Of a stretch of DNA of 64,000 nucleotides, positions 40,861 to 52,134 are shown in pieces (positions within the stretch are counted from its first letter, which is position 1; each line of letters begins with the position of its first letter). The translations under genes and the position numbers were made by a program. Source of the DNA: Vibrio tubiashii (GTDB taxonomy: Bacteria; Pseudomonadota; Gammaproteobacteria; Enterobacterales; Vibrionaceae); assembly GCF_028551255.1 (NCBI RefSeq), contig NZ_CP117030.1, positions 1,302,001-1,366,000 of the forward strand, given 5' to 3'. The notes below the pieces were generated by a model that saw nothing but the letters and a program-made list of their open reading frames with translations, was not told where the DNA came from and ran no database searches.

Positions 40861-41661
40861 ATGAGACTTATCCCGTTAAATCAAGCAGCACAAGTAGGTA
40901 AGTGGGCAGCGGCGCACATTGTTAAACGCATCAACGATTTCAAACCTACTGCAGAGCGTCCTTTTGTTCTAGGTCTACCAACAGGTGGTACACCTCTAGC
41001 GACTTACAAAGCGCTTATCGAACTGCATAAAGCTGGCGAAGTTAGCTTTAAGCACGTAGTCACATTTAACATGGATGAGTACATTGGCATCCCTGCGGAT
41101 CACCCTGAATCGTACCGTTCATTCATGTACAACAACTTCTTCAACCACATTGATATTCAAGAAGAGAACATCAACCTTCTTGACGGCAATGCACAAAACA
41201 ACGAAGAAGAATGTCAGCGTTACGAAGACAAAATTAAGTCTTACGGCAAGATCAACCTATTTATGGGCGGCGTAGGTAACGACGGTCACATCGCGTTTAA
41301 CGAGCCTGCGTCATCTCTATCTTCACGTACTCGTATTAAAACGCTAACGGAAGATACTCGTATCGCAAACTCTCGTTTCTTCGATGGCGATATCAACCAA
41401 GTACCAAAATACGCGCTAACCATCGGTGTAGGTACACTTCTTGATGCTGAAGAGATCATGATCCTAGTAACAGGTCACAACAAAGCACTAGCACTTGAAG
41501 CAGCAGTTGAAGGTAGCGTAAACCACCTATGGACGGTATCTGCACTACAGCTACACCCTAAATCAGTGATCGTATGTGACGAGCCTGCAACTCAAGAATT
41601 GAAAGTGAAGACGGTAAAATACTTTACTGAACTTGAAGCTGAGAACATCAAAGGTTTCTAA
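40861..41661 (+). CDS. nagB: Glucosamine-6-phosphate deaminase NagB
   Basis: Converts glucosamine-6-phosphate into fructose-6-phosphate and ammonia, the last step of amino-sugar use and the point where chitin breakdown products enter glycolysis. The 266 residues match E. coli NagB in length; motifs are [23 protein letters not shown] with catalytic Asp, and [28 protein letters not shown] lies before the ATG. It is alone here, with no nagA next to it, and has its own terminator. Confidence 0.97.
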
Positions 41662-41679
41662 TTCCTTTGCCCAAATTGA

Positions 41680-41708
41680 AAAATCCGAGCTAGGCTCGGA
41701 TTTTTTTT
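41680..41708 (+). terminator. Terminator of nagB
   Basis: AATCCGAGC-tag-GCTCGGATT followed by seven or more T, 20 bases after the nagB stop codon. Confidence 0.92.
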
Positions 41709-44145: not shown

Positions 44146-45057
44146 ATGGACTCTAAGATGTTGAATCAGGTTAACCTCGCAGATGTACGCTCATTTGTTT
44201 TAATTGCTCAGCTGGGCAATTTTACCAAAGCCGCTGAGGCGCTAGATGTGTCTCGCTCGCACGTTTCGCGCCAAATAAGCAACCTAGAGAAGCAGATGAA
44301 GGTAACGTTGCTAATCCGCACTACCCGTAGCTTAAAACTCACCGATGCTGGAAAACAGTTCTATTTACAGTGTGAGAAAGCCCTAGCGGGGATTGACCAA
44401 GCTATCTTGTCTGCAGTCGATGACGTGGAGCAAGTTCAAGGTGAGATTCGCATTAACTGTGTAGGAGGCTATCTAGGGGAAGAACTGATTGCACAGATCA
44501 CCTGCGACTTCATGGAACAGTATCCAAACACTCAGGTTAATCTTGATTTTAGTAGCCATAGGGTCGACTTGCTGGAAGAGGATTTTGATATCGCCTTCCG
44601 CATGGGACGTTTGGAAGACTCAGGCTTTGTTGCGCGCAAGTTGATGACAATTGAAATGAGCACACTGGCGACGCCTCAATATCTCAGTACTCATGGTCAA
44701 CCTTCTCATCCTAAAGAACTCGCGCAGCATCAATGCCTAACTGGTTCAGTAAAGCGTTGGGGGTTCACCCATCAAACCAGTCAAGATAAGGCTGAAATCG
44801 CCATTCATGGACATTTACAGTGTAAAAATGGACGTGTATTGGTGAAAGGCGCGTTGAATCATCAAGGTATTATTCGAGTCCCTGCCATCTACTGTCGAGA
44901 GGAGCTAGAGCGAGAAGAACTAGTCGAGGTGTTCAATGATTGGGCTATCCCTAGTGTCGATTTCTCTGCAATCTACCATCGAGACAGATACCAACCCAAA
45001 CGCTTAAGAGTGTTTATTGATTTCGTAAAACAGCGATTTGATGACCTTGCTATTTAG
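44146..45057 (+). CDS. LysR family transcriptional regulator
   Basis: Regulator of 303 residues with an N-terminal winged helix (VRSFVLIAQLGNFTKAAEAL, then DVSRSHVSRQISNLEKQM) and a C-terminal substrate-binding-type effector domain. It is divergent from the SDR gene with a 141-base shared promoter region, the usual layout for a LysR protein and its target. It belongs to the CrgA/YafC-like group by its length and HRVDLLEEDFDIAFRMG motif. Its last four bases overlap the convergent aldehyde dehydrogenase gene. Confidence 0.93.
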   Translation: MDSKMLNQVNLADVRSFVLIAQLGNFTKAAEALDVSRSHVSRQISNLEKQMKVTLLIRTTRSLKLTDAGKQFYLQCEKALAGIDQAILSAVDDVEQVQGEIRINCVGGYLGEELIAQITCDFMEQYPNTQVNLDFSSHRVDLLEEDFDIAFRMGRLEDSGFVARKLMTIEMSTLATPQYLSTHGQPSHPKELAQHQCLTGSVKRWGFTHQTSQDKAEIAIHGHLQCKNGRVLVKGALNHQGIIRVPAIYCREELEREELVEVFNDWAIPSVDFSAIYHRDRYQPKRLRVFIDFVKQRFDDLAI

Positions 45058-46490
45058 CGTAGAAACAAACGCCCAAGTACCTCCACGGCTAACTTACGGT
45101 ATTTGAGCAGCAAATAATTCCGTGGTAACCAAGCAGGCGAGTAAAGCACTGTTTTCGCTTTAGTGAAGGTACGGAAGCCTTCCTCGCCGTGATACTGCCC
45201 TATCCCAGACTCACCGATTCCACCGAATGGCGCATCCTCTGCAGCGACATGGAGCAAGGTGTCATTGACCACCACGCCACCGCTGTGAGTTTGTTCAATG
45301 ACTTGGTGCTGTAAAATTTTGTCGTTTGACATCAGGTACAAAGCCAATGGTCGTGGCCTAGCGTTAATAAAAGCAAAAACTTCATTCAAGTGACGATAGC
45401 CGATAACTGGCAATATTGGGCCAAAGATCTCTTCTTGCATAAGGAGCATTTTGTCAGAAACACCGGTCACTAAATGTGGCACCATCTGTCTAGGTTCAAG
45501 ATCTAAATAGTCGATGGTGTGAATGGTTCCGCCTAGGCTTTTTGCATCATGTAAGTAGTGCTGCAACCTTTGATATTGTGCTTGATTAACGATGGTTGTT
45601 GATGACGTTAAGCTCCCTTCTTTTACATAGAGCTGGTAGAAGCGTTCCAAATAACGTTCAATGAACTTAAGCTCTTTCCCTTGAGGTACTAAGACGTAAT
45701 CAGGTGCGACACAGATTTGCCCGGCATTAATAGACTTGCCTAGCAAGATAGCATCCACCGCCTTACTAATATCAGCATCGTTGGCAACAATAGCAGGAGA
45801 CTTACCACCAAGCTCTAAAGTCACGGGGGTTAGGTTTTTCGCCGCTTCAGCAGCGACTAATCTTCCTACCTTGGTGGAGCCTGTAAACAGTAGGTGATCA
45901 AAGGGTAGCGCGCTAAAGTACCGAGATATTTCAGCCCCCCCTTCAACTGGGTAAACGTGCTCCCCTACTTCAGAAAATAGGTCACAGAGTACTTGATTGG
46001 TGTTTGGCGTATGTTCACTGAGTTTGACCATTACCCGATTTCCCGCGGCAATCGCCGTCACAATAGGGGCAATACTCAGTACGATAGGGAAGTTCCAAGG
46101 CACCATGACCCCGACAACACCTAAAGGTTGATAATTAACACGGACTTTGGAGGGGAATAGTAATAATCCTGCAGATCGCTTGCTCGGTTTGATCCAGCTT
46201 TTGAGATGTTTGATGGTGTAGTTGATATGGGTAATTGCAGGCAGTAAATCGCAGATCAAACTGTCGAACTCACTGCGGTATCCATAATCTTGGCGCAGCG
46301 CATCGACTAACATTTGTTTGCGTTCTAACAGTTCGTATTTGAGGATGCGAAGCCATTCTAAACGCTGCTCCAACTCCGGATAAGGCAGACTGCTATAGCT
46401 CGCTTTTACTTCAGAAAACAGGTGCTTTAGGTCTTGCTCTGTTTTGACGTGTTCCTTCTGCCAACGATTAAGATCGACCACTTTTTCCAT
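45054..46490 (-). CDS. Aldehyde dehydrogenase, coniferyl-aldehyde dehydrogenase type
   Basis: NAD(P)-dependent aldehyde oxidation, probably of aromatic or long-chain aldehydes. The 478 residues have the ALDH set: PWNFPIVLSIAPIVTAIAAGN, FTGSTKVGR, LELGGKSPAIV with the general-base Glu and NAGQICVAPDYV with the catalytic Cys, then EEIFGPILPVIGY. The short N-terminus and C-terminal membrane-like tail (NYLLLKYRKLAVEVLGRLF) fit class 3/CALDH proteins. It is convergent with the LysR gene and downstream of the candidate sRNA. Confidence 0.92.
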   Translation of the reverse strand: MEKVVDLNRWQKEHVKTEQDLKHLFSEVKASYSSLPYPELEQRLEWLRILKYELLERKQMLVDALRQDYGYRSEFDSLICDLLPAITHINYTIKHLKSWIKPSKRSAGLLLFPSKVRVNYQPLGVVGVMVPWNFPIVLSIAPIVTAIAAGNRVMVKLSEHTPNTNQVLCDLFSEVGEHVYPVEGGAEISRYFSALPFDHLLFTGSTKVGRLVAAEAAKNLTPVTLELGGKSPAIVANDADISKAVDAILLGKSINAGQICVAPDYVLVPQGKELKFIERYLERFYQLYVKEGSLTSSTTIVNQAQYQRLQHYLHDAKSLGGTIHTIDYLDLEPRQMVPHLVTGVSDKMLLMQEEIFGPILPVIGYRHLNEVFAFINARPRPLALYLMSNDKILQHQVIEQTHSGGVVVNDTLLHVAAEDAPFGGIGESGIGQYHGEEGFRTFTKAKTVLYSPAWLPRNYLLLKYRKLAVEVLGRLFLR

Positions 46491-46584: not shown

Positions 46585-46792
46585 AAAAAAGCAGCACCAG
46601 AAAACCGGTCGTGGGGGTCAGGAGCATGTTGTCAGGTGCTGCTTAGTTTTACCAATTCATCAGTTGCAAAAGGCTAACTAATGCCAGTCGCTCGATGAAA
46701 GAAGAGCCCTCTTCAAGTTTGGAGCGATAGTAAACACTGAGTTGTGATTCCAGTTTTTCTCTTTTCATCATTTCCTCCTCTGTTGCCACCTA
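46585..46792 (-). ncRNA. Candidate SgrS-like regulatory RNA carrying a small ORF
   Basis: On the minus strand TTGACA (46827-46822) and a -10-like TAAAGT (46805-46800) are 16 bases apart, predicting a start near 46792. The transcript would contain the AGGAGG-led small ORF at 46768-46649 and end at a long hairpin: GCAGCACC (46642-46635) pairs with GGTGCTGC (46598-46591), followed by six T. The total of about 208 nt, the small ORF in its 5' half and divergence from an sgrR-like gene match enteric SgrS (227 nt with SgrT). The 36-nt loop holds CTCCTGACCCCC, complementary to Shine-Dalgarno-type sequence. Confidence 0.5.
46649..46768 (-). CDS. Small protein ORF of 39 residues, SgrT-like in position
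   Basis: Sequence begins MKREKLESQL and ends LVSLLQLMNW; two adjacent ATGs exist, and AGGAGG is five bases before the second, which I use. The chain has an amphipathic/hydrophobic C-terminal half with a final Trp. It lies 183 bases from, and divergent to, the SgrR-family gene, the place where enterics have sgrT inside sgrS. From memory E. coli SgrT is 43 residues; similarity beyond a Leu-Met-x-Trp stretch near the end could not be tested. Confidence 0.6.
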   Translation of the reverse strand: MKREKLESQLSVYYRSKLEEGSSFIERLALVSLLQLMNW

Positions 46793-46950
46793 TTTTGCGA
46801 CTTTATAAGGAAGGTAAAAACTGTCAATCTAGGTTAATTTCATTCCCCATAAAGACAGCGATCTGGCAAAAAATGGCAGAAAAGAGTAGCAAAGCGACAA
46901 AACTAGGAACAAAATCAATAAACAGATTTCTGGTTTGATGAGTATTTTTT

Positions 46951-48702
46951 GTGTCTGACTTAAATTTATTGCGTTACTACAGCCGTTTGGTCCCACTTGG
47001 TGTTGGCGTCGAGCATAAAACGACATTGCCAATCGTTGCCGATTCGCTATTTACCACCTCCCGTCACGCACGCAACTTGCTGAATCAAATGCTTGATTTG
47101 TCTTGGTTATCTTGGATTCCAAAAGCTGGGCGCAATCAACGCTCTACGTTGATCCTTCACCTTCATCTAGACGAACTTAAAGCACAGCTGGCTTCAAAAC
47201 GAATCCTAGAAGGTAAATATGAAAAGGCGCTGTCGATACTGGATGACGACGAAGTAGCGTTTGGAAGATTGCTACAAAGCACCTCTGGCGCAACAATACG
47301 TGAAGGTCTGCTGCATATTCAGCTCACCTACAAACGCCCTTTTGAACGCTTGGTGCCACATCAACTCCAGCGTTCTAGCGAGCGCTATCTGCTAAGGCAA
47401 ATCTATTGCTGTTTAGTATCGAGTGCTGCCAACGGAAACCTAGAGCCACAGCTTGCTCACCATTGGCGCTATGATGAATCGAATCTTGAGTGGAGCTTTT
47501 ACCTGCGCCCAGGATTAACCTTTCACAATGGTGAAGCGATCAGTGGTGAGTCGATAGTAAATCTGTTTAAAAAGCTCACAACCTTGGCTGATTATCAGAG
47601 CGAGTTAAACCATCTCATCGACGTCTACACACCTTCGCCAAACAAGATTGTTTTTAAGCTTTCTAAACCTGACCTCGGCTTTGGTGGCTTGATTTCAGGC
47701 GTTAAGTATTCCATTCAGCCCATCTCGCAAATCAGTGAGGCACCAATCAAGCAAGTCATTGGTTGTGGGCCATTTGAAGTGACCGAACACTCTGAGAGCA
47801 AACTCTGTTTACAAGCCTTTGAGCGCTACTACGCTTGCCGCGCGTTAACTGACCAAGTTACGATTTGGCATCTTGACGAATCTGAACTGCAAAACAAGCA
47901 AATTCAGACCAATCAGCCAGGAGCTCAAGCAAGTTCAGACTGTAATTACTACGTTTCTCACGCCGTAAGTAAGCACTTAGACCGCAATGTTCAACAAAGC
48001 CGTACCGAAGATGGCTGTATGTTTGTGCTCTTTAACCAATGCGGAGAAACGGTATTAGATGACAATCAACGCCGCTTTCTGTCTACTTATTTAACACCGC
48101 ACAAGGTGTTTAATTACCTAGAACAGCATAACCTACTTTTCGGCTGTGAAGTTGCACAAAACCTGCTGCCGATGTGGCACAAGATCACCCGCCCTGAGAT
48201 GCCCGAGGCTGCCCTGCCTAAACGGCTGACTATCGCTATCTATGATTACAGCTCGTTGCGAAACTGCGCTTTAGCGGTGAAATACCTGCTGGAGCAATAT
48301 GGTGTGGAAGTGGTGATTAACAGCTATAGCTATCGCCAGCTGACGACTCTGGCTGAATCTGGTCAGCTTCAAGAGTCTGTCATCATTACCAATATCAACC
48401 TTGATGACAATCGACACGCCTCTGCGTTTAACAGCCTTTACCATAATCCTATTATCCAACGCTGTATTGGAGAACAATCGAAGGCATGGCTACTAGATAG
48501 GCTAAATCATCTGCGTTCGGACACAGAACTACCGGATTACCTCGACGCTCTCGAACCTATAGCTTCTGCGTTGATCAATCAGTTTTGGCTCTCTCCCCTG
48601 TTCCACCACAGACAGACATTGCGCTTTCAGGGAGTGCTTAAAGACGTAGCACTCACCAACTGGGGATGGCCGGATATCAAGAATGTCTGGTCTGCCGATT
48701 AG
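46951..48702 (+). CDS. sgrR: SgrR-family transcriptional regulator
   Basis: Regulator of 583 residues with an N-terminal winged helix (about 10-115; TTSRHARNLLNQMLDLSWLSW then R-N-Q-R-S-T-L) joined to a periplasmic-binding-protein-like domain of the peptide-binding (SBP_bac_5) type at about 160-560 (LEPQLAHHWRYDESNLEWSF, YLRPGLTFHNGE). This fusion is the hallmark of SgrR, which in E. coli senses sugar-phosphate stress and activates sgrS. The start is GTG at 46951. Divergently, on the minus strand, lies the candidate SgrS-like unit. Confidence 0.88.
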   Translation: MSDLNLLRYYSRLVPLGVGVEHKTTLPIVADSLFTTSRHARNLLNQMLDLSWLSWIPKAGRNQRSTLILHLHLDELKAQLASKRILEGKYEKALSILDDDEVAFGRLLQSTSGATIREGLLHIQLTYKRPFERLVPHQLQRSSERYLLRQIYCCLVSSAANGNLEPQLAHHWRYDESNLEWSFYLRPGLTFHNGEAISGESIVNLFKKLTTLADYQSELNHLIDVYTPSPNKIVFKLSKPDLGFGGLISGVKYSIQPISQISEAPIKQVIGCGPFEVTEHSESKLCLQAFERYYACRALTDQVTIWHLDESELQNKQIQTNQPGAQASSDCNYYVSHAVSKHLDRNVQQSRTEDGCMFVLFNQCGETVLDDNQRRFLSTYLTPHKVFNYLEQHNLLFGCEVAQNLLPMWHKITRPEMPEAALPKRLTIAIYDYSSLRNCALAVKYLLEQYGVEVVINSYSYRQLTTLAESGQLQESVIITNINLDDNRHASAFNSLYHNPIIQRCIGEQSKAWLLDRLNHLRSDTELPDYLDALEPIASALINQFWLSPLFHHRQTLRFQGVLKDVALTNWGWPDIKNVWSAD

Positions 48703-48929: not shown

Positions 48930-49919
48930 ATGAAACTAAAAACGGCTGCATTACTAACCCTAAGCGCAACCGCTTTCCATGCCCAAGCTGAAGAGTGTGG
49001 CAAGGTAACAATCGCTGATATGAACTGGAATTCCGCCACAGTGATTGCCAACGTAGATAAGTTTATTCTTGAGCACGGCTACGGCTGTGATGCTGAATTA
49101 ATCCCGGGCGATACTATGCCAACGGGTACATCAATGATTGAAAAAGGTCAGCCAGACGTAGCACCTGAACTTTGGAGTAATAGCCTGAAAGATGCTTTGG
49201 ACAAGGGCGTTGCAGAAAAGCGTCTTCGTTACGCAGGTAAATCACTCGTCGATGGTGGCGAAGAAGGATTTTGGGTTCCTGCCTATCTCGTTAAGCAATA
49301 TCCTGAAATAGCAACCATTGAAGGTGTTAAGAAGCACGCGAAGTTATTTGAGCACCCTGAAGATCCTGATCACTCAGCCTTCTATAGCTGTCCAGCAGGT
49401 TGGAACTGCCAAATCAGTGCAGGTAACCTGTTTAAAGCTCTAGGTTTAGAAGGCTCTGGCTTTACCATTGTTGACCCAGGCTCAAGTGCTGGTCTATCCG
49501 GTGCAATAGCAAAAGCGTATGAGCGTGAAGAAGCTTGGTTCGGTTACTACTGGGCTCCGACTGCTGTTCTCGGTAAATATGAAATGGTCAAAGTGGACTT
49601 CGGCAGTGGCGTAAACGAAAAAGAGTTCGTCGGCTGTACGACACAGGCTGAATGTGAAGCGCCTAAACCAACCATGTACCCACCTTCACCTGTACACACA
49701 ATTACCACTGAAGAGTTTGCTAGCCGCGCACCACAAGCTTATGACTATTTCACTAAGCGTGGCTTTAGCAACGCAGATATGAACCAACTTCTTGCTTGGA
49801 TGGAAGATAACCAAGCAGATGGCGAAGAGGCGATGTTCCATTTCCTAGAAGAGTACCCACAAATTTGGCAAGCATGGGTACCTCAAGATGTGGCAAACAA
49901 AGTGAAACAAGCACTTTAA
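48930..49919 (+). CDS. proX: Glycine betaine/choline ABC transporter substrate-binding protein ProX
   Basis: Periplasmic binding protein of 329 residues for glycine betaine, choline or related osmoprotectants. A signal peptide ends at HAQA (about residue 20), then the OpuAC-type domain begins (VTIADMNWNSATVIANVDKFIL). Aromatic residues for the betaine cage include W in PELWSN and FGYYWAPT. AAGGA precedes the ATG. It heads a proX-proW-proV operon; osmotic induction is likely from knowledge of the family. Confidence 0.93.
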   Translation: MKLKTAALLTLSATAFHAQAEECGKVTIADMNWNSATVIANVDKFILEHGYGCDAELIPGDTMPTGTSMIEKGQPDVAPELWSNSLKDALDKGVAEKRLRYAGKSLVDGGEEGFWVPAYLVKQYPEIATIEGVKKHAKLFEHPEDPDHSAFYSCPAGWNCQISAGNLFKALGLEGSGFTIVDPGSSAGLSGAIAKAYEREEAWFGYYWAPTAVLGKYEMVKVDFGSGVNEKEFVGCTTQAECEAPKPTMYPPSPVHTITTEEFASRAPQAYDYFTKRGFSNADMNQLLAWMEDNQADGEEAMFHFLEEYPQIWQAWVPQDVANKVKQAL

Positions 49920-50012
49920 GCCGATAAGAAACCTATAGCGCCGTTAGGCACTATGCTTTAGATGTACTCCTTCGCTACAAGGGTGGCGAAGGAGAATAAA
50001 AGGAACTTATTG

Positions 50013-50912
50013 ATGTCTAATGACAGCTGGTTCAACAGCTTTCCCGAAATGGAACGCTCTGATCTAAGAGCAATCCGCAAAACCCTCGATGGTGCATATC
50101 GAGATTTCTCACGAGAATATGGCGACCTTATTGAATCCTTCTTCGACCCTCTACTCTCCTTTCTAATCTGGTTTGAAAAGTTATTAATTTCAACGCCTTG
50201 GATGATTGTCTTAGCAGTATGTACCGGCCTTGTCTACGCTGCTAGTCGTTCATGGAAATTGGCTGTAGGTTGTTTTGTTTCTTTGATTCTTATTGGCTAC
50301 TTTGGCATGTGGGAAGACACAATGCGCACCTTGAGCATTATCACCGTCTGTACCATGCTCTCGATAGTGTTGGGTATTCCGATTGGTATTGCCATGGCGC
50401 GATCGAATCGTGTTCAGTCGGTCGTTACGCCAATGCTCGATGTGATGCAAACCATGCCAGCCTTCGTTTACTTGATTCCGGTCGTGATGCTGCTCGGTAT
50501 TGGTAAAATCCCAGGCCTTATCGCGGTTGTCATTTACGCCATACCGCCTGTCATTCGCTTAACTAATCTAGGCATACGCTTGGTCGATAAAGAAGTGCTC
50601 GAAGCTGCCACCGCTTTTGGCGCTAGCGCTAAGCAACGACTGTTTGGTGTGCAACTTCCGCTCGCCATGCCCACCATTATGGCGGGAATCAACCAAACCA
50701 TTATGATGGCGCTTTCTATGGTAGTTATCGCATCAATGATTGGTGTTAAAGGACTGGGTCAGCCTGTACTTAAATCGATCACTAACCAGTACTTCACGCT
50801 TGGTTTACTCAACGGCTTCGCAATAGTCGCACTAGCGATACTGTTTGATAGAGCTTCTCAAGCTTACGCGAAACGCACACAGGCTCATTTAGGAGATCTA
50901 AAACATGACTAA
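50013..50912 (+). CDS. proW: Glycine betaine/choline ABC transporter permease ProW
   Basis: Inner-membrane permease of 299 residues of the ProW/OpuAB type, with about six helices and the EAA coupling motif EAATAFGASAKQRLFGVQLPLAMP. The frame is open from 49962, but the ATG at 50013 has AAGGAAC eight bases upstream and a matching N-terminus (MSNDSWFNSFPEMERSDLRA). Its last eight bases overlap the start of proV, so the two are co-translated. Confidence 0.94.
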   Translation: MSNDSWFNSFPEMERSDLRAIRKTLDGAYRDFSREYGDLIESFFDPLLSFLIWFEKLLISTPWMIVLAVCTGLVYAASRSWKLAVGCFVSLILIGYFGMWEDTMRTLSIITVCTMLSIVLGIPIGIAMARSNRVQSVVTPMLDVMQTMPAFVYLIPVVMLLGIGKIPGLIAVVIYAIPPVIRLTNLGIRLVDKEVLEAATAFGASAKQRLFGVQLPLAMPTIMAGINQTIMMALSMVVIASMIGVKGLGQPVLKSITNQYFTLGLLNGFAIVALAILFDRASQAYAKRTQAHLGDLKHD

Positions 50913-52134
50913 ACCACTTATTGAGATCAGTGGCTTATATAAGGTTTTTGGTCAAAAGCCTAAGTCAGTGATGGAGCGCGTGAAACAAGGTGACAGTAAG
51001 GATAAAGTCTTAGCTGAAACCGGACATACGGTTGGTCTGAAGGAAATTAACCTGCAGATCAACCAAGGTGAGATTTTTGTCATCATGGGTCTATCTGGGT
51101 CAGGTAAATCAACCTTGATTCGCCACTTCAACCGCCTAATCGATCCCACTGAAGGTCAGATTCTGGTTGAAGGTACAGATGTCATGAAACTGAGCCAAAA
51201 AGAGCTTGAAGAGTTTCGTCGCCACAAGATGTCGATGGTTTTTCAGCGCTTTGGTTTATTGCCTCATCGCACTGTGGTCGACAATGTCGCTTATGGACTG
51301 GAAATTCAGAATATTGAAAAATCTCAACGGCTACAAAAAGCTAACCAATGGCTCGATACAGTCGGCTTGAAAGGCTATGAGAACCAGTACCCTTCACAAC
51401 TTTCCGGTGGCCAACAACAACGTGTCGGATTGGCTCGTGCACTCTGTACTGATGCGGAAATTTTGTTAATGGATGAAGCTTTTTCTGCCCTCGACCCGCT
51501 GATCCGAAGCGAGATGCAAGATCAGTTAATCGAACTGCAAGAGAAGCTACACAAGACCATTATCTTCATTACCCACGACTTAGATGAAGCACTTCGTCTT
51601 GGTGACCGTATCGCCATTCTTAAAGATGGCGAACTTGTCCAGCAAGGCACACCAGATGAAATTTTGCTTCACCCTGCCGACGACTACGTTGAAGCCTTCG
51701 TTAAAGATGTCAACCGAGCGCGAGCCCTAACGGTTGAAACCGTTATGAACCCACCTGCGTACCGAATTACAGCAAACACGATTCAAGAAGCGATTGCTCA
51801 AATGAAGGGCTTTAAGCAGGACTATGCTTACCACGTTACCGAGGATGGCTATCAAGGCGTATTAACCAAAGAAGGCCTGCTCGATGCGGCTAAAGACACG
51901 ACTAAGGAAGAGACCATTAAAGAGGAGTTCTATGAAGAAGTTCCTGCAGTTTCTCCAGATGCCGCGATTGAGGAAGTATTGGTCGATACCATGTCTTGTG
52001 ATTACTCACTACCCGTTGTCGATGAAGACGGTAACTTGCAAGGTGAGTTAGAACGAAGCGCGGTGGCTGAAATATTCTCTGACAGCTCAGAGGAGGAAAC
52101 ATCACCAGCCCCAAAGTTGGATAAGGCCTCTTAG
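50905..52134 (+). CDS. proV: Glycine betaine/choline ABC transporter ATPase ProV
   Basis: ATPase of 409 residues powering the ProXWV importer. Walker A GLSGSGKST near 63, signature [15 protein letters not shown] near 170 and Walker B ILLMDEAFSALDP follow the family. After about residue 270 there are two CBS domains (VMNPPAYRI; then YSLPVVDEDGNLQG), which in OpuA-type ATPases sense ionic strength. A strong terminator follows. Confidence 0.95.
   Translation: MTKPLIEISGLYKVFGQKPKSVMERVKQGDSKDKVLAETGHTVGLKEINLQINQGEIFVIMGLSGSGKSTLIRHFNRLIDPTEGQILVEGTDVMKLSQKELEEFRRHKMSMVFQRFGLLPHRTVVDNVAYGLEIQNIEKSQRLQKANQWLDTVGLKGYENQYPSQLSGGQQQRVGLARALCTDAEILLMDEAFSALDPLIRSEMQDQLIELQEKLHKTIIFITHDLDEALRLGDRIAILKDGELVQQGTPDEILLHPADDYVEAFVKDVNRARALTVETVMNPPAYRITANTIQEAIAQMKGFKQDYAYHVTEDGYQGVLTKEGLLDAAKDTTKEETIKEEFYEEVPAVSPDAAIEEVLVDTMSCDYSLPVVDEDGNLQGELERSAVAEIFSDSSEEETSPAPKLDKAS

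What the first reader, a model, noticed from the sequence alone, without database searches (positions are those of the whole stretch)
46585..46950. SgrS/SgrT-like sRNA with a small ORF, divergent from an SgrR-family gene, in a Vibrio
Opposite the SgrR-family gene lies a compact unit: perfect -35 TTGACA, a -10-like TAAAGT 16 bases on, AGGAGG, a 39-40 codon ORF, and a rho-independent terminator. The predicted length of about 208 nt and ORF placement copy E. coli SgrS/SgrT (227 nt, 43 aa). Unlike SgrS, the pairing-type sequence (CTCCTGACCCCC) is in the loop of the terminator hairpin itself; it complements GGGGGTCAGGAG, a Shine-Dalgarno-type target, and from memory the E. coli ptsG leader has TCAGGAG. 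SgrS is described in enterics; I know of no Vibrio description. The neighbour is an aldehyde dehydrogenase, not setA.
Basis: partly seen in the sequence, partly recalled or inferred. Interest (0 to 1): 0.78.

Follow-up and report, generated by a model that had tools for sequence, protein, structure and literature searches.

The report
SgrS-like dual-function RNA in Vibrio
Next to a sugar-stress regulator gene, many Vibrio bacteria appear to carry a small RNA gene, often with a tiny protein inside it, that looks built to shut off the main glucose importer, a counterpart of a well-known E. coli system thought to be missing from Vibrio cholerae.

Summary
The unit is real and conserved. Divergent from an SgrR-family gene lies a gene of about 200 nt: an activator-type promoter, a 39-codon ORF and a terminator hairpin. 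A promoter matrix built from Vibrio alone finds the E. coli sgrS promoter. The hairpin stem covaries (11 of 12 pairs) while its loop keeps GCUCC(UGA) plus CCCC(C). Of 71 distinct regions beside sgrR 60 have such a hairpin, against 0 of 587 background segments. The ORF evolves as protein (pN/pS 0.29 in frame; 1.07 and 1.40 out of frame) and resembles SgrT weakly. The loop is antisense to the Shine-Dalgarno region of ptsG or a ptsG-type gene in 30 of 30 genomes; in ten that is the only such site in the genome. Rfam SgrS and Pfam SgrT do not match, so it is not filed as a member. V. cholerae encodes the ORF, though a 2026 preprint says SgrS is lacking there. Expression, SgrR control and ptsG repression are untested.

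The parts
46791..46823 (-). sgrS-type promoter element CAGTTTTTACCTTCCTTATAAAGTCGCAAAATA: supposed SgrR box TTCC at the -35 place, then the -10
   Evidence: conserved in Vibrio; matrix from 31 Vibrio sites also finds the E. coli sgrS promoter
46792..46797 (-). -10 element CAAAAT; start of RNA inferred near 46784 by analogy with E. coli sgrS (7 nt after the element)
   Evidence: inference
46899..46912 (-). TTGTTCCTAGTTTT, a second conserved TTCC box nearer sgrR, perhaps another SgrR site
   Evidence: conserved by eye in the alignment; place checked; role inferred
46774..46779 (-). Shine-Dalgarno AGGAGG of the small ORF
46649..46768 (-). 39-aa SgrT-like ORF MKREKLESQLSVYYRSKLEEGSSFIERLALVSLLQLMNW (other start at 46771)
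   Evidence: pN/pS 0.29 in frame; relatives
46585..46642 (-). terminator hairpin (arms 46635-46642 and 46591-46598) and T-tract 46585-46590
   Evidence: covariation
46618..46627 (-). seed block A ATGCTCCTGA in the loop, antisense to the ptsG Shine-Dalgarno region TCAGGAGCAT
46613..46618 (-). seed block B ACCCCC in the loop, antisense to the G-run upstream in the ptsG leader
46951..48702 (+). SgrR-family regulator gene (GTG start), the supposed activator
   Evidence: PF12793 7.2e-28 and SBP_bac_5 2.1e-21; NF010149 259.9 bits, below its cut-off 476

Best explanation
A Vibrionaceae counterpart of sgrST. The divergent SgrR-family protein activates a promoter of the same design as that of E. coli sgrS. 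The RNA, about 200 nt, encodes a 39-aa SgrT-like protein and ends in a terminator hairpin whose loop displays a two-block antisense seed. Block A pairs with the ptsG Shine-Dalgarno region and block B with a G-run about 30 nt upstream, which blocks translation of the glucose transporter; the small protein probably acts on PTS sugar uptake as SgrT does. Shown by sequence: promoter likeness, covarying hairpin, coding selection, complementarity. Inferred: transcription, SgrR dependence, Hfq use, ptsG repression, function of the protein.
For: Stem covariation with invariant loop letters. Model hits in 196 Vibrio genomes: 44 of 62 lie 176-449 nt upstream of sgrR and divergent. Seeded hairpin in 60 of 71 distinct sgrR-divergent regions, 0 of 587 background segments. 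Vibrio promoter matrix finds the E. coli sgrS promoter: 14.4 against at most 9.4 elsewhere in the window. ORF pN/pS 0.29. TCAGGAGCAT-ATG found at ptsG or a ptsG-type gene in 30 of 30 genomes, sole site in 10. Profile likeness to SgrT, 0 of 200 column shuffles as good.
Against: No transcript seen. Duplex energy does not single out ptsG: 207 of 5088 background windows are as good, and 712 of 2000 shuffled loops. The two-block leader also occurs in 25 of 71 Vibrio genomes without an SgrR ortholog, so it has other users. No co-change of seed and target found. No Rfam SgrS or Pfam SgrT match. The ORF is missing in part of the loci that have the hairpin: 13 of the first 31. The unit is lost in L005.
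Confidence: 0.75

Rival explanations
1. An SgrR-controlled small RNA whose main targets are other mRNAs (for example the second glucose-type PTS gene or PTS genes in general), with ptsG minor or incidental because the seed is antisense to a Shine-Dalgarno-like sequence.
For: The seed contains CUCCU, antisense to any AGGAG; energies are not specific; the ptsG leader is kept in 25 of 71 genomes without an SgrR ortholog; the second glucose-type gene has GTCAGGAGG before its start in 9 of 9 loci looked at, 8 nt complementary to the window's seed.
Against: The 10-nt block recurs at the same gene in 30 of 30 genomes, the other 36 matches listed being scattered; two blocks match the same leader.
Confidence: 0.13
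2. A plain small-protein mRNA: the conserved product is the small protein, and the hairpin is only its terminator.
For: The ORF is under purifying selection.
Against: Loop letters are kept while the stem changes, and 13 of the first 31 regions keep the hairpin without the ORF.
Confidence: 0.06
3. No functional RNA: a chance hairpin and a chance ORF in an intergenic region.
For: No transcript seen; single-sequence folding z only -2.36.
Against: Covariation, coding selection, promoter conservation and co-location with sgrR.
Confidence: 0.02

Closest known systems
SgrS/SgrT of E. coli and other enterics (Rfam RF00534, Pfam PF15894)
   Same: Divergent from sgrR; same promoter design; ORF near the 5' end; pairing sequence 3' of the ORF and antisense to the ptsG ribosome-binding region; ORF absent in some species here, as PMC8672173 says of SgrT (passage).
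   Different: Seed differs and sits in the terminator loop, whereas nucleotides 168-187 of E. coli SgrS precede its stem-loops (PMC7870926, passages); aldehyde dehydrogenase gene instead of setA; no RF00534 or PF15894 match.
VcdRP of Vibrio cholerae (PMC8672173)
   Same: Vibrio dual-function RNA with a small ORF and a C-rich seed near the 3' end that represses ptsG and other PTS mRNAs (passages).
   Different: Other locus (between vc2278 and vc2279), repressed by CRP, 306 nt, 29-aa VcdP that acts on citrate synthase; this unit stands beside sgrR and has another peptide.
Listeria LhrC family
   Same: Pairing sequence in a terminator loop (recalled; only a search listing seen).
   Different: Gram-positive host, other regulator and targets; no kinship claimed.

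Membership tests
SgrS RNA (RF00534) | matches the Rfam covariance model | tested here: not met
   No match in the window or in 5 Vibrio and 1 Photobacterium loci; E. coli and three unnamed relatives score 73-229 bits, a fourth 29 (below the gathering score 37), a fifth none
SgrS RNA (RF00534) | gene divergent from and next to sgrR | tested here: met
SgrS RNA (RF00534) | sgrS-type, SgrR-dependent promoter | tested here: inconclusive
   The promoter sequence is of the sgrS type; dependence on SgrR not testable here
SgrS RNA (RF00534) | pairs with the ptsG translation start region | tested here: inconclusive
   10-nt complement at ptsG or a ptsG-type gene in 30 of 30 genomes, but duplex energies are not specific; no reporter test possible
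SgrS RNA (RF00534) | pairing region lies 5' of the terminator stem-loop | tested here: not met
   seed lies in the terminator loop; E. coli layout from PMC7870926 (passages)
SgrS RNA (RF00534) | induced by sugar-phosphate stress, needs Hfq | not testable with these tools
   needs experiments
SgrT protein (PF15894) | Pfam match | tested here: not met
   0 families for 4 Vibrio ORFs while E. coli SgrT gives 3.3e-13; none in G001
SgrT protein (PF15894) | profile likeness to the family | tested here: inconclusive
   hhalign probability 19%, P 0.0012; 0 of 200 column shuffles as good
SgrT protein (PF15894) | inhibits PtsG | not testable with these tools
   needs experiments
SgrR regulator | SgrR_N plus SBP_bac_5 domains | tested here: met
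   PF12793 7.2e-28 and PF00496 2.1e-21
SgrR regulator | NCBIfam equivalog NF010149 over its cut-off | tested here: not met
   259.9 bits against 476
VcdRP | 29-aa VcdP at the vc2278-vc2279 position | tested here: not met
   39-aa ORF beside sgrR; VcdRP place and size from PMC8672173

The most novel reading that the evidence does not exclude
The sgrR-sgrS/sgrT system is older than the split of enterics and vibrios and is present through much of Vibrionaceae, V. cholerae included. The vibrio form has its antisense in the terminator loop as a two-block seed that pairs with two separated parts of the ptsG leader; in one lineage a small hairpin sits between the two blocks of the RNA (L213, L214, L243).
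Probability: 0.55. Interest if true: 0.8.

Novelty: new variant of a known kind. Interest (0 to 1): 0.72.

Why it matters
A 2026 preprint says V. cholerae lacks SgrS upstream of its SgrR homolog, though it cannot exclude an analogous system, and suggests that E. coli usurped the circuit by means of a small RNA (PMC13060122, passages); a 2025 paper says SgrS has not been identified there (PMC12345230, passages). If this locus works as proposed, the small-RNA arm is ancestral and was hidden because seed and peptide diverged beyond Rfam and Pfam. That makes sugar-phosphate stress control in vibrios directly testable, and shows a seed kept under strong constraint inside a terminator loop.

Tried and rejected
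RNAduplex energies of the loop against ptsG do not discriminate and are not used as support. A contiguous GGGGGTCAGGAGCAT target: in G001 the only exact match is the locus itself, the four others have 2 mismatches and none was seen to be a gene start. The 11-bp DsvR box of PMC13060122: its letters are not in the passages read, and no shared 11-mer was found between zapC and sgrR upstream regions in the five pairs compared, so my TTCC box is not tied to it. Naming the peptide by Pfam or NCBIfam failed. No solved structure of SgrT by sequence at E up to 1; for the Vibrio profile only three chance-level hits at E 0.55 or more. The AlphaFold model (two helices, pLDDT 81.8, pTM 0.36, single sequence) was not searched further. 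Co-change of seed and target across clades was looked for and not found. The Rfam hits near the window at E up to 5 were all below their gathering scores.

Full report
What is there. On the minus strand, divergent from an SgrR-family gene (46951-48702; PF12793 at 7.2e-28), lie a promoter element (46791-46823), AGGAGG, a 39-codon ORF (46649-46768), and a hairpin with arms GCAGCACC/GGTGCTGC followed by six T (46585-46642). The neighbour is an aldehyde dehydrogenase gene (45054-46490), not setA.

Conservation. The SgrR protein was sought in 196 Vibrio genomes (30 loci fetched) and in a named collection (40 loci, among them V. europaeus, V. mimicus, V. metoecus, V. anguillarum and Photobacterium ganghwense). 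The divergent side of sgrR carries a hairpin whose stem changes from lineage to lineage while the loop keeps GCTCC(TGA) and CCCC(C). On 21 aligned loci 11 of 12 stem pairs show two-sided changes; covariation is 0.499 against a shuffle mean of 0.249, 0 of 500 shuffles as high. A covariance model from these loci, run over 196 Vibrio genomes, hits 57; of 62 hits, 44 (in 44 genomes) lie 176-449 nt upstream of sgrR and divergent; the other 18 lie elsewhere or without a listed sgrR. In 197 genomes of the family 40 match, in 7 of 13 genera; the hits outside Vibrio are weak and were not followed up. The one Photobacterium locus read matches at 28.3 bits. A rule-based scan finds a seeded hairpin in 62 of 74 rows of sgrR-divergent regions, which are 60 of 71 distinct loci once repeats are merged, and in 0 of 587 background segments of the window. 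The 11 without it are L005, L025, L060, L062, L064, L219, L239, L246, L248, L251 and L252. Of these L025 has the letters in a weak hairpin; L246 has ACTCC instead of GCTCC in an otherwise alike hairpin; L062 and L239 hold similar letters in another order; L060 (V. metoecus) is matched weakly, and on both strands; L219 is G196, whose hairpin lies 5.6 kb away.

The ORF. A motif scan finds the ORF in 33 of 71 upstream sequences, duplicates between the two fetches included, in 9 of 17 further regions, and in 6 of the 15 sgrR-upstream regions. Of the first 31 regions 16 have it, and 13 have the hairpin without it. In one of the 16, L008, no ATG start fits. Within three clades pN/pS is 0.29 in frame and 1.07 and 1.40 in the shifted frames. 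Six residues are invariant in 17 peptides. There is no Pfam or NCBIfam match. Against a 14-sequence alignment of SgrT relatives the profile score is 18.9, probability 19%, P 0.0012, and 0 of 200 column shuffles reach it: suggestive, not proof. A profile search of 5.8 billion proteins returns 22, none with a Pfam domain; the names given are all 'hypothetical protein', including V. cholerae P0043 (97 member sequences) and P0040 (14), and V. vulnificus P0037 (50). I infer, but did not see, the same arrangement in V. cholerae itself. Named V. mimicus shows the ORF and the hairpin.

The promoter. CAGTTTTT-N3-TTCC-NNATT and a following -10 are shared more widely. A weight matrix from 31 Vibrio sites, the window's included, scores 36.2 at its own site in the window and at most 9.4 at the other positions. 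In the E. coli sgrR-sgrS region (400 nt scanned) the best score is 14.4, ending 7 nt before the annotated sgrS start. Eleven more outside loci were scanned over 1000 nt each: 10 of the 17 loci and the Photobacterium. In each the best site is of the same form. Of the 12 outside loci 10 beat every other window position; two (4.2 and 6.3) do not. So the promoter is of the sgrS type, with a supposed activator box in place of a -35. The start of the RNA is inferred.

The target. In 30 of 30 Vibrio genomes a ptsG-type leader holds CGGGGGTGT, a spacer, and TCAGGAGCAT just before the start codon; three of these leaders (L098-L100) stand before another kind of IIBC protein, below the family's cut-off. 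TCAGGAGCAT with an ATG within 9 nt hits this gene in 30 of 30 genomes and nothing else in ten of them. The other 20 have 1-4 further scattered matches each, and the reversed control pattern gives 10 matches in all. The window's loop matches block A over 10 nt and block B over 5-6. In L213, L214 and L243 a small hairpin stands between the two blocks of the RNA, and in L247 a longer linker (read by eye). Against this: duplex energy alone does not single out ptsG (207 of 5088 windows and 712 of 2000 shuffled loops are as good). The two-block leader is found in 107 of 125 genomes with an SgrR ortholog (my line: E under 1e-90) but also in 25 of 71 without (Fisher p 9e-13, not corrected for kinship), so it has other users. 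VcdR, which pairs with ptsG through four cytosines (PMC8672173, passages), is a candidate. Of 17 of the 18 genomes with SgrR but without the exact leader, 14 gave a ptsG gene: all 14 leaders keep TCAGGAGC and 13 keep a run of five or more G, with changed letters after it. In the V. mimicus group the leader reads GGGGGTATG and ATCAGGAGCAT, while the loop reads GCTCCTGATGCTTCCCCC in G063 and G090, with small variants in G035 and V. mimicus: complementary in block A, weaker in block B. No co-change of seed and target was found.

Family. The Rfam SgrS model does not match the window or any of the 5 Vibrio and 1 Photobacterium loci tested, while E. coli and three unnamed relatives score 73-229 bits, one more 29 and one none. 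Pfam SgrT is found in 17 of 295 genomes of the order, none of them in the Vibrio family. In E. coli the pairing nucleotides 168-187 precede the terminator stem-loop (PMC7870926, passages); here the seed is inside it. So it works like SgrS, as far as sequence can say, and shares its place and promoter, but I do not file it as a member of RF00534 or PF15894.

Literature. I searched for SgrS (30 of 123 papers listed), SgrT (15 of 25), SgrR (21 of 21) and glucose-phosphate stress (15 of 30), each with Vibrio; for vca0578 (2 of 2); and more loosely. No listing showed a description of this RNA. I opened five papers: PMC13060122 (passages, and sections 8 and 10), which says V. cholerae lacks SgrS but cannot exclude an analogous system; PMC12345230 (passages), which says SgrS has not been identified there; PMC8672173 (parts 1-2 of 12 and passages); PMC6597380 (passages); PMC7870926 (passages). 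The library holds open-licence papers only, and the 2009 survey of SgrS homologues could not be read, so earlier mention elsewhere is possible.

Verdict. A conserved, very probably functional RNA gene with a translated ORF: well supported. Control by SgrR and repression of ptsG: likely, untested. Homology of the peptide with SgrT: possible.

Noticed in passing
L098, L099, L100 (G096, G139, G033): The ptsG-type leader with both blocks stands before another kind of PTS IIBC protein, as if the gene behind the leader had been replaced.
   Followed up: partly
L071-L079: The second glucose-type PTS gene has GTCAGGAGG before its start in 9 of 9 loci looked at, 8 nt complementary to CTCCTGAC of the window's seed: a possible further target.
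   Followed up: partly
L238 (G196:C2:1566077-1566140): The hairpin lies about 5.6 kb from sgrR instead of beside it, with a sgrS-type promoter score of 16.9 upstream.
   Followed up: partly
L236 (G029:C67:62308-62374): A 36-bit hairpin with GCTCCTGATAACCCCCC in a genome without a clear SgrR ortholog.
   Followed up: no
L060 and L207, just before sgrR: In V. metoecus and G090 the sgrR gene's own upstream stretch holds ACAGGAGCAT, partly complementary to the seed; perhaps feedback on sgrR (by eye).
   Followed up: no
L200, L202, L203 (unnamed family f25): SgrT-like ORFs with the sgrS-type promoter but no obvious terminator hairpin soon after the ORF; L202 matches Rfam SgrS at 73 bits, L200 does not match.
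   Followed up: partly
window 41646-41707 (+): Weak match to the leucine leader family, 31.3 bits against a gathering score of 50.
   Followed up: no
window 48930-52134 (+): Choline/glycine betaine ABC transporter genes follow sgrR: OpuAC domain 3.4e-60; the permease- and ATPase-like ORFs are named by eye.
   Followed up: no
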